From: Mycobacterium pseudokansasii
Lineage (GTDB): Bacteria > Actinomycetota > Actinomycetes > Mycobacteriales > Mycobacteriaceae
Reading direction: 5' to 3'
Length of the DNA stretch: 64,000 bases
Assembly: GCF_900566075.1 (NCBI RefSeq)
Contig: NZ_UPHU01000001.1
Coordinates: 2,232,001-2,296,000 of the forward strand
Position 1 is the stretch's first letter. Every line of letters begins with the position of its first letter. This document shows positions 41,306 to 64,000 of the stretch, one piece after another. The position numbers were made by a program, and so were the translations under genes. The notes under the pieces are model-generated. The model searched no databases. It was given only the letters and a program-made list of their open reading frames with translations, and had not been told where the DNA came from.

Positions 41306-41375
41306 CCTAGCCCGGTCCTAGCCCGGTCCTGCCGCGGCTGACCCGCTCCTGGTCCGGTCCTGCCGCGGCTGACCC
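41306..41375. repeat. Short tandem repeats in the lexA-chiZ intergenic region
   Basis: The sequence starting CCGGTCCTGCCGCGGCTGAC occurs at 41323-41344 and 41354-41375 (31-base period), preceded by further copies of the shorter CCGGTCCTAG unit. This sits in the 357-base gap between lexA and chiZ, away from the regulatory sites, and is a likely variable-number locus. Confidence 0.6.
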
Positions 41376-62388: not shown

Positions 62389-62503
62389 CGGCTTGCGGGT
62401 GTGCGCTCGCGGCGTTGACCGTGTGTGACGGCTCTCAATACGCGGGCGCGGCGGGATTGCTGCCGACTGGGCCGGCCCTGGTCGCACCGGGAACAGCGGT
62501 AAC

Positions 62504-63199
62504 TCACACTCGAGGACCGGGCTCACCGGCCGCCGGTGAGGTTGGCGGCAGCAACAGCCGGCTCAGCTCCTCCTCTGCCTCGGTGACCGCGACGAACAGC
62601 AATTCGTCGCCCCCTTCCAGCGGCTCATCGGCTTGCGGCACGATGACTCGCGGTCCGCGCAGGATCGTGACCAGTACCGCATCCCGCGGTAATTGCAACT
62701 TGCGTACGGGCTTGCCGCCCCAGGGTGTGTCGTCGGGCAGTGTGATCTCCACCAGGTTTGCCTGGCCCTTGCGGAATTCCATCAGCCGTACCAGGTCGCC
62801 GACGGCGACGGCCTCCTCGATCAGCGAGGCCAGCATGCGCGGAGTGGAAACCGCCACGTCAACGCCCCAGGCGTCGGTGAACAACCACTCGTTGCGGGGA
62901 TCGTTGACTCGGGCCACCACCCGCGGCACCGCGAATTCGGTCTTGGCCAGCAGGCTGAGTACCACGTTGACCTTGTCGTCGCCGGTAGCGGCAACCACGA
63001 CATCGAAATCCTCGAGGTGCACCGACTCCAGGAGGCTCAGCTCGCAGGCATCCCCCAATTGCCAATGCGCGGTCGGGATGGCATCGGGGTCAAGGTGGTC
63101 GCGATTGCGCTCGATCAGGGTCACATCGTGCCCATTTCCAATGAGTTCGCGGGTCACTGAGCGGCCGACGGCGCCGGCCCCGGCGACGACTACCTTCAT
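62504..63199 (-). CDS. ceoC: TrkA-family potassium uptake regulatory protein CeoC
   Basis: A 231-residue cytoplasmic gating subunit for Trk/Ktr potassium channels. The RCK N-domain binds NAD(H) or nucleotide at VVAGAGAVGRSVTRELIGNGHDVTLIERN, with ATGDDKVNVVLSLLAKTEFAVPRVVARVNDP further on. The RCK C-domain occupies the last 80 residues (VEITLPDDTPWGGKPVRKLQLPRDAVLVTILRG). It matches Rv2692. Its ATG at 63199 is supplied by the last unit of the MIRU-like repeat and overlaps the stop of a mini-ORF (ATGA). Confidence 0.94.
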   Translation of the reverse strand: MKVVVAGAGAVGRSVTRELIGNGHDVTLIERNRDHLDPDAIPTAHWQLGDACELSLLESVHLEDFDVVVAATGDDKVNVVLSLLAKTEFAVPRVVARVNDPRNEWLFTDAWGVDVAVSTPRMLASLIEEAVAVGDLVRLMEFRKGQANLVEITLPDDTPWGGKPVRKLQLPRDAVLVTILRGPRVIVPQADEPLEGGDELLFVAVTEAEEELSRLLLPPTSPAAGEPGPRV

Positions 63200-63267
63200 C
63201 TGCGCCACTCCTTAACCCCGGCTCGAAGCCGGGCCGAGCCGGCGTCTTCGTCGTGGGCGCGCTTCAT
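63196..63267 (-). CDS. MIRU mini-ORF 2 (23 codons), coupled to ceoC
   Basis: Starts at ATG 63267 with GGAG upstream and encodes the same 23-residue peptide as mini-ORF 1 except His for Asp at position 5 (MKRAHDEDAG). Its TGA overlaps the ceoC ATG (ATGA). Ribosomes ending here could restart on ceoC. Confidence 0.5.
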   Translation of the reverse strand: MKRAHDEDAGSARLRAGVKEWRR

Positions 63268-63335
63268 CTGCGCCACTCCTTAACCCCGGCTCGAAGCCGG
63301 GCCGAGCCGGCGTCTTCGTCGTCGGCGCGCTTCAT
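63264..63335 (-). CDS. MIRU mini-ORF 1 (23 codons), coupled to ceoB
   Basis: Starts at ATG 63335, overlapping the ceoB stop (ATGA), and encodes a charged 23-residue peptide beginning MKRADDEDAG and ending KEWRR. Its stop overlaps the start of mini-ORF 2. Probably serves translational coupling rather than making a functional peptide. Confidence 0.5.
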   Translation of the reverse strand: MKRADDEDAGSARLRAGVKEWRR

Positions 63336-64000
63336 TTGCGCGGCCCTGACTCGAAGTCCTCACTGGGCGGCAGGGCCGCAATGGCCACCGCCTCGGCCGC
63401 CCGGCCGGAGATGGCGGCAACGTAGACCTGATCGCCGGCCTGCAGGATCGTCTTCGGCTCGGGCAGCACCCCGGTTCCGAATCGGATCAGGAACGCCGCC
63501 CGAGCGCCGGTGGCCTGCTCCAAGTCTGTGACCCGGTGCCCGATCCAGTCCTCGTGCAAGATGACCTCGGCGACGGCGACGGTACCGGTGGGATCGCGCC
63601 ACTTGGCGGTCTCAGTTTCGCGGAGCAACGCGTTGAGCAGCCGGTCGGTGGTCCAGGGCACCGTGGCGATCGTGGGGATACCCAGGCGTTCGTAGACCTC
63701 GGCGCGCTTGGCGTCATAGATGCGGGCGACCACTCGCGGCACACCGAAGGTTTCCCGGGCCAACCGTGCCGAGATGATGTTGGAGTTGTCTCCAGAGGAC
63801 ACCGCAGCGAATGCGTCGGCACCTTCGATGCCTGCCCGCAGCAGCACATCTCGGTCGAATCCCTGGCCAAGCACCCGCTCACCGGCAAACTCGGGGCTGA
63901 GCCTGTTGAAAGCGGTGCTGTCACGGTCGATGACCGCGACGTCGTGGCCGATGCGGGACAGCGCGTCGGCCACCGACGAGCCGACCCGGCCGCACCCCAT
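63332..64000 (-). CDS. ceoB: TrkA-family potassium uptake regulatory protein CeoB (5' end outside window)
   Basis: The frame is open to base 64000 and begins MGCGRVGSSVADALSRIGHDVAVIDRD; M. tuberculosis Rv2691 has a few residues before this (MRVAV), so a few codons are missing. It is the RCK-type partner of CeoC: nucleotide-binding GCGRVGSS, AVSSGDNSNIISARLARETFGVPRVVARIYDP-like segment, and a C-domain (VAVAEVILHEDWIGHRVTDLEQATGARAAFLIRFG). It is upstream of ceoC in the same operon, separated by the MIRU-like repeat. Confidence 0.94.
   Translation of the reverse strand: MGCGRVGSSVADALSRIGHDVAVIDRDSTAFNRLSPEFAGERVLGQGFDRDVLLRAGIEGADAFAAVSSGDNSNIISARLARETFGVPRVVARIYDAKRAEVYERLGIPTIATVPWTTDRLLNALLRETETAKWRDPTGTVAVAEVILHEDWIGHRVTDLEQATGARAAFLIRFGTGVLPEPKTILQAGDQVYVAAISGRAAEAVAIAALPPSEDFESGPRK

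What the first reader, a model, noticed from the sequence alone, without database searches (positions are those of the whole stretch)
63194..63341. MIRU-like repeat forms a daisy chain of overlapping mini-ORFs between ceoB and ceoC
The 68-base repeat is placed so that every junction is an ATGA: ceoB stop/mini-ORF 1 start, mini-ORF 1 stop/mini-ORF 2 start, mini-ORF 2 stop/ceoC start. Because the period (68) is not a multiple of three, each unit shifts the frame, yet the ATGA joints keep ribosomes passing from ceoB to ceoC for any copy number. This resembles the MIRU described in senX3-regX3. Here copy number could tune the CeoB:CeoC ratio and hence potassium-channel gating. The inverted repeat in each unit could also form an RNA hairpin.
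Basis: partly seen in the sequence, partly recalled or inferred. Interest (0 to 1): 0.7.

Follow-up and report, generated by a model that had tools for sequence, protein, structure and literature searches.

The report
MIRU repeat relaying ribosomes between genes
Between two potassium-uptake genes of a Mycobacterium kansasii-group bacterium sits a doubled member of a known mobile repeat family (MIRU) whose tiny reading frames hand over to each other without a gap; this design is already described, but comparison across the genus suggests that evolution has guarded the reading-frame relay at this junction.

Summary
On the minus strand ceoB, two 23-aa mini-ORFs and ceoC are joined by three ATGA stop/start overlaps made by two 68-nt units that differ at one base. 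The unit belongs to the MIRU family: a profile of ceoB-ceoC units recognises the unit in senX3-regX3 of the same genome, and related units sit at gene junctions elsewhere. The relay architecture is already in print (review passage). New here is a comparative test. Of 80 ceoB-ceoC junctions, 22 are bare 4-nt overlaps and 44 are closed mini-ORF chains of 1 to 8 links. Where ceoB ends in DTGA and sequence intervenes, 44 of 46 are closed, against means of 10.8 (random length) and 27.0 (same-length shuffle), over at least 34 length changes on a tree; in a second set 13 of 16. The peptide shows no sign of conservation. So frame closure, and by inference translational coupling, is kept. Copy number as a tuner of CeoB:CeoC is untested, and nothing found here supports it. 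Ordinary kind, well-supported instance.

The parts
63332..64000 (-). ceoB (TrkA_N + TrkA_C, RCK-type K+ transport regulator), 3' part; its start lies outside the window
63332..63335 (-). ATGA joint 1: ceoB stop / mini-ORF 1 start; no Shine-Dalgarno core upstream
63264..63335 (-). mini-ORF 1, 23 aa
63262..63329 (-). MIRU-type unit 1 (68 nt)
63286..63310 (-). predicted 9-bp hairpin in unit 1; each of the five CCGGC/GCCGG core pairs is kept in 19 or 20 of 20 aligned units
63276..63281 (-). Shine-Dalgarno AAGGAG of unit 1, 8 nt before the mini-ORF 2 start
63264..63267 (-). ATGA joint 2: mini-ORF 1 stop / mini-ORF 2 start
63196..63267 (-). mini-ORF 2, 23 aa (one residue differs from mini-ORF 1)
63194..63261 (-). 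MIRU-type unit 2 (68 nt, one mismatch to unit 1)
63218..63242 (-). predicted hairpin in unit 2
63208..63213 (-). Shine-Dalgarno AAGGAG of unit 2, 8 nt before the ceoC start
63196..63199 (-). ATGA joint 3: mini-ORF 2 stop / ceoC start
62504..63199 (-). ceoC (TrkA_N + TrkA_C), 231 aa

Best explanation
This is a tandem pair of MIRU-family elements at the ATGA stop/start overlap of ceoB-ceoC; one unit probably entered in an ancestor of the M. kansasii complex and doubled in this genome. Each unit regenerates the overlap at its exit: it opens with the upstream ATGA, carries a short stop-free frame, a Shine-Dalgarno AAGGAG and a closing ATGA, and its length is 2 mod 3. Ribosomes ending ceoB would restart at mini-ORF 1, then mini-ORF 2, then ceoC by termination-reinitiation, helped by each unit's Shine-Dalgarno and by unfolding of the hairpin. 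Shown here: anatomy, family kinship, empty and filled sites in relatives, frame closure kept through many length changes. Inferred: the insertion history, that the frames are translated, and that coupling is the reason for the constraint. The peptide itself is probably irrelevant.
For: Anatomy. Kinship: the ceoB-ceoC model R1 hits 9 of 11 sister-subfamily loci of this genome at E < 1e-3, senX3-regX3 among them (alignment). Closed chains at 7 of 16 strong hits of the sister model in this genome and at 14 of 18 fetched R1 loci other than ceoBC in other genomes. Empty site in a near relative (L008, bare ATGA) and single units in 5 named complex members. Of 46 junctions whose ceoB ends in DTGA and that have intervening sequence, 44 are closed; controls in 400 runs: random length and composition mean 10.8 (max 19), 1-2 nt indels mean 2.8 (max 9), same-length shuffles mean 27.0 (max 38). 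At least 34 length changes on the tree. Second set: 13 of 16 closed. Where ceoB ends TAA/TAG, the 12 gaps fall in all three residue classes (6, 2, 4), a weak contrast because 11 of the 12 are one clade. Variable columns by codon position 5, 6, 1 in seven complex units: no sign of peptide conservation. Published reporter work supports reinitiation at an AUGA overlap for an Mtb uORF (PMC11260477 passages). No sigma-70-like site in 63000-64000 and no TANNNT on the gene strand of 63191-63340.
Against: No ribosome or RNA data were examined. Whole-MIRU insertions bring closure with them, so part of the excess reflects the element's own design; short leaders without a clear MIRU argue against that being all. 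Not every unit is closed: 9 of 16 strong hits in this genome are not clearly closed, among them the 76-nt units at 5711740 and 1881719; L009 and L062 are open in the first set (L062 keeps a TGATG overlap), L213 (the same record as L062), L251 and L263 in the second. Each unit has its own Shine-Dalgarno, so ceoC could also start independently. Rows are related, so counts are not independent.
Confidence: 0.78

Rival explanations
1. Copy number is a regulator: each extra link loses a fraction of ribosomes (or adds a Shine-Dalgarno), so unit number sets the CeoB:CeoC ratio.
For: Link number varies between close relatives: 0, 2, 6 and 8 among five M. asiaticum-labelled genomes. The length of a MIRU-VNTR region upstream of Mtb fpg1 is reported to correlate with its mRNA level (PMC2734929 abstract and passages), though the differences are called modest there.
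Against: No expression data here; bare, single and multiple states interchange among near relatives, as expected if number hardly matters; the two units here are nearly identical, which suggests a recent doubling.
Confidence: 0.12
2. The repeat is a transcriptional element: a promoter or mRNA-processing site in it makes ceoC independent of ceoB.
For: The senX3-regX3 intergenic region, which holds MIRUs in Mtb, is reported to have promoter activity (PMC4213456 passages citing Rifat 2014; the 2014 paper itself is not held).
Against: No sigma-70-like site in 63000-64000 (other promoter types are not covered by that scan); no TANNNT on the gene strand of the junction; the frame constraint is unexplained by a promoter.
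Confidence: 0.08
3. Selfish neutral passenger: the element is tolerated because its design does not disturb ceoC; closure is inherited from the element, not selected at this locus.
For: The review passage says the -4 nt layout likely lets the MIRU insert with minimal impact. The family is widespread (R1: 122 of 297 genus genomes at E <= 0.01; R2: 206 of 396 at E <= 1e-6).
Against: Closure also holds for degraded units and short leaders of many different lengths (23 distinct gap lengths, of which only length 38 is never closed), which suggests selection against frame-breaking indels after insertion. As to origin it is compatible with the main explanation.
Confidence: 0.2
4. The mini-ORFs encode a functional 23-aa peptide.
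For: Frames are open and share a general pattern because the DNA is shared.
Against: Third codon positions are the least variable (1 of 12 variable columns, a small sample); link length runs from 6 to 37 aa between relatives; no Pfam match for mini-ORF 1.
Confidence: 0.02

Closest known systems
MIRU of the senX3-regX3 intergenic region (Supply 1997; that paper was not read, only as cited in passages of PMC12548453, PMC4213456, PMC5849605, PMC2734929)
   Same: Short intercistronic unit, small ORF coupled by 4-nt overlaps, tandem copies, place at a stop/start junction, shared ends with the own-genome senX3-regX3 unit; relatives' ceoB-ceoC units also share the optional 24-nt block of sister units
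   Different: Unit of 68 nt with a hairpin-forming middle instead of the 53-nt (this genome) or 77-nt (Mtb, PMC4213456 passage) unit; different host locus; the middle hardly aligns
AUGA-coupled uORF of Mtb ppe2 (PMC11260477, passages)
   Same: Translation of a small frame delivers ribosomes to the next gene across AUGA
   Different: There one uORF behind a riboswitch, tested by reporters; here two repeated small ORFs between two genes, untested
Coupled small ORFs of mycobacterial leaderless transcripts (PMC4633059, passages)
   Same: RTGA joint between small ORF and gene
   Different: There at transcript 5' ends; here inside an operon and made by a repeat

Membership tests
MIRU (mycobacterial interspersed repetitive unit) | Unit length 46-101 bp (as quoted in PMC5849605) | tested here: met
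   68 nt, two copies
[quoted passage not shown]
   Three ATGA joints
MIRU (mycobacterial interspersed repetitive unit) | Sequence kinship with the senX3-regX3 unit | tested here: met
   R1 hits the own senX3-regX3 unit, 29.9 bits, E 7.9e-6 over 33.7 kb; the reverse test with R2 is weak, 9.4 bits, E 0.0026 over 4 kb
MIRU (mycobacterial interspersed repetitive unit) | Interspersed at many loci | tested here: met
   Met for the family, not for the 68-nt subfamily, which occurs only here in the genome. Sister units give 16 hits at E <= 1e-3, and R1-type units lie at other junctions in other genomes
MIRU (mycobacterial interspersed repetitive unit) | Copy number varies among strains | tested here: inconclusive
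   Varies between species (0, 1, 2, 6, 8 links); no second strain of this species was available
MIRU (mycobacterial interspersed repetitive unit) | Matches the Mtb MIRU sequence directly | not tested
   I did not identify an Mtb genome in the unnamed set; the own-genome senX3-regX3 unit was used instead
Translationally coupled gene pair | Downstream translation depends on upstream translation | not testable with these tools
   Needs reporters or ribosome profiling

The most novel reading that the evidence does not exclude
The ceoB-ceoC junction is a natural series of ribosome relays in which selection acts on frame closure alone. Any number of links (0, 1, 2, 6, 8 seen) is allowed, the peptide is free to drift, and link number sets a graded CeoC:CeoB ratio, giving a heritable dial on potassium uptake that evolves by simple repeat slippage.
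Probability: 0.12. Interest if true: 0.6.

Novelty: new member of a known kind. Interest (0 to 1): 0.35.

Why it matters
MIRUs are known mostly as typing markers. The genus-wide frame test here is comparative evidence that their mini-ORFs matter in translation, and it picks one junction where empty, single, double and multiple relay states exist in close relatives: a ready natural series for measuring how much a ribosome loses per stop/start hand-over.

Tried and rejected
Search for more copies of the 68-nt unit in the own genome by DNA similarity: one full match with the 148-nt query; with the 74-nt query 41 matches at E <= 10, of which only the two window units are full length. Pattern GACGAAGACGCCGG with one mismatch: 38 places against 9 in the reversed control; apart from the window only one place (L104) was looked at, and it showed nothing MIRU-like; the rest were not followed. 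RNA structure as the conserved function: of five units folded, four fold better than shuffles (z -2.6 to -5.0, M. celatum best) and M. gastri does not (z -0.83), but only 1 of 6 consensus pairs has two-sided changes, so structure remains open. Rfam: no match at E <= 1 in 62400-64000. The thought that MIRUs mainly supply a Shine-Dalgarno to ceoC: 17 of 22 bare junctions already have a core; pairing energy differs significantly but little (medians -7.3 bare, -8.2 chain kcal/mol, Mann-Whitney p 1e-4). It may hold for the kansasii clade, whose bare relative L008 has no core. M. kansasii VNTR typing paper PMC5849605: loci needed at least 4.5 repeats, so a 2.2-copy locus would not have been chosen (abstract and passages). 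Print searches for this locus (listings only, open-access library): 'mycobacterial interspersed repetitive unit' + ceoB, one paper, unrelated (passages); MIRU + translational coupling, two papers; others (15 of 176 listed; 4 papers) showed no ceoB-ceoC case; of 14 CeoB/CeoC/Trk papers only passages of PMC6375644 and PMC9392950 were seen.

Full report
What is there. The finding's coordinates are exact. Read on the minus strand, ceoB ends at 63332, two 68-nt units follow, and ceoC starts at 63199. Every joint is ATGA, so ceoB overlaps mini-ORF 1 by 4 nt, mini-ORF 1 overlaps mini-ORF 2, and mini-ORF 2 overlaps ceoC. The units differ at one base and form the highest-scoring of 14 tandem-repeat rows of the window. 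Both neighbours are single TrkA modules with TrkA_N and TrkA_C domains; NCBIfam TrkA models match, but below their cut-offs. The genome is 6.43 Mb in two contigs, and the nearest rows of the junction-free tree are M. innocens, M. ostraviense, M. persicum, M. gastri and M. attenuatum, so it is a member of the M. kansasii complex; the exact species was not settled.

Geometry. A frame that starts at one ATGA and stops at the next needs a period of 2 mod 3. The unit's 68 satisfies this, as do 53, 56, 80 and 92, seen in sister units and relatives. Each unit also carries AAGGAG 8 nt before the next start. The first link's start, inside the end of ceoB, has no Shine-Dalgarno core (pairing energy -4.0 against -7.8 kcal/mol at ceoC), so mini-ORF 1 would depend most on ribosomes coming from ceoB. 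This last point is inference.

Family. The 68-nt unit has no further copy in its own genome by similarity. A covariance model built from 20 ceoB-ceoC units of the window and relatives (R1) finds two more places in the genome at E below 1e-3, each at a gene junction. They belong to a sister subfamily with the core GACGATGCAGAGCG or close to it (12 places with at most one mismatch, reversed control 0). One of these is senX3-regX3 of this genome, with a single 53-nt unit and a closed 18-aa link; another looks like argJ-argB (both named from the protein starts by recall). A sequence model of that subfamily (R2, trained on 9 of those units) gives 23 hits at E <= 0.1 and 16 at E <= 1e-3 in the genome. 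Seven of those 16 are closed chains between frames of at least 80 codons; two more chain on by a longer or doubtful route (1881719, 4315008); the other seven are not closed or have no frame of 80 codons beyond. R1, which was not trained on any of them, hits 9 of 11 sister loci at E < 1e-3, the senX3-regX3 unit at 29.9 bits, E 7.9e-6; the other two give E 0.011 and 0.12. The reverse, R2 on the window, is weak (9.4 bits, E 0.0026 over 4 kb). The two subfamilies share both ends, and relatives' ceoB-ceoC units share the optional 24-nt block with sister units. R1 matches 122 of 297 genus genomes at E <= 0.01 and R2 206 of 396 at E <= 1e-6. Of 29 R1 loci fetched from other genomes, 11 are ceoBC (10 closed) and 18 are other places (14 closed); two of the 29, L157 (ceoBC) and L177 (other), were cut short and not properly testable but are counted as not closed. 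I conclude that the unit is a MIRU.

Comparative test of the relay. Protein-guided retrieval found 318 relatives and kept the best 80 named loci. One (L021) lacks ceoB upstream and was dropped; with the window that makes 80 junctions. Twenty-two are bare 4-nt overlaps, 44 are closed chains of 1 to 8 links, 14 are not closed; of the 14, twelve have a ceoB ending in TAA or TAG. Among the 46 junctions whose ceoB ends in DTGA and which have intervening sequence, 44 are closed. In 400 control runs, random length and composition gave a mean of 10.8 (maximum 19), single 1-2 nt indels 2.8 (maximum 9), and same-length shuffles 27.0 (maximum 38). On a quick tree with 19 weakly supported forks the gap length changed at least 34 times among the rows that do not end in TAA/TAG, and only two rows (L009, L062) are open; L062 still has a TGATG overlap. 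Where ceoB ends in TAA/TAG the gap lengths spread over all residue classes (6, 2 and 4 of 12), but 11 of these 12 form one clade, so this contrast is weak. At least two of these 60 (L212, L213) are named rows again, which leaves 12 of 14. Counts are not independent, because relatives share leaders; the tree count is the fairer figure. Gene starts and stops were taken from tblastn matches, not from annotation.

History. Near relatives show the empty site (L008, bare ATGA, labelled M. simiae), one 68-nt unit (M. ostraviense, attenuatum, persicum) or one 92-nt unit (68 + the 24-nt block; M. gastri, innocens). Of these six complex genomes only the window's has two units. M. asiaticum-labelled genomes carry 0, 0, 2, 6 and 8 links, the 6, 8 and one 0 on short neighbouring branches. 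The end of ceoB in the empty site (GCAAATGA) resembles the unit's own end, which may have guided insertion; this is a guess. The tree is unrooted for gain and loss, so insertion in the complex's ancestor is inferred.

What the unit does. Peptide function is unlikely: in seven complex units the variable columns fall 5, 6 and 1 on codon positions 1, 2 and 3, and link lengths run from 6 to 37 codons. A hairpin is predicted, but only one of six consensus pairs shows two-sided change. No sigma-70-like promoter and no TANNNT box was found in the junction; other promoter types were not tested. Reinitiation at AUGA in mycobacteria has reporter support (PMC11260477 passages). The best reading is a ribosome relay that keeps the ancestral ceoB-ceoC coupling in spite of the insertion. 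Tuning by copy number is possible but unsupported.

Known or new. A 2025 review states in a passage that MIRUs appear to be mobile, insert at start codons and couple their ORF to the gene by -4 nt spacing, citing Supply 1997 (PMC12548453). A 2009 paper's passage credits to Supply 1997 the proposal of differential translation within operons (PMC2734929). So mechanism and speculation are both in print. This locus and the frame-closure test did not show up in the listings (open-access library only; Supply 1997 itself was not available to read).

Noticed in passing
G000:C1:741404-741459 (L182, L193): senX3-regX3 (named by recall) of this M. kansasii-complex genome carries one 53-nt MIRU with a closed 18-aa link, although a passage in PMC4213456 says such units exist only in M. 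leprae and the Mtb complex.
   Followed up: partly
G000:C1:1881719-1881789 (L202) and 5711740-5711819 (L198): Two MIRUs of 76 nt with the 24-nt block (the first before a leuB-like start, by recall) do not end in frame at their closing ATGA: natural broken cases for comparison.
   Followed up: partly
L020, L024, L026: M. asiaticum-labelled genomes have ceoB-ceoC arrays of 6 and 8 links (mostly 56-nt units) next to a bare overlap on a short branch.
   Followed up: yes
L057:2945-3004: A MIRU stands at the ceoC start although ceoB ends in TAA, so the element can sit at a start codon without an overlap with the upstream gene.
   Followed up: no
L235 and L248 junctions: A minimal MIRU-like leader begins with a one-base overlap at a CTGA stop (TGATGA) and closes on a TTG start of ceoC.
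   Followed up: no
G000:C1:3051900-3052568: A second CeoC-like protein (53% identity) is encoded elsewhere in the genome.
   Followed up: no
window 41311-41375: A 31-nt unit repeated about twice, second highest tandem-repeat score of the window.
   Followed up: no
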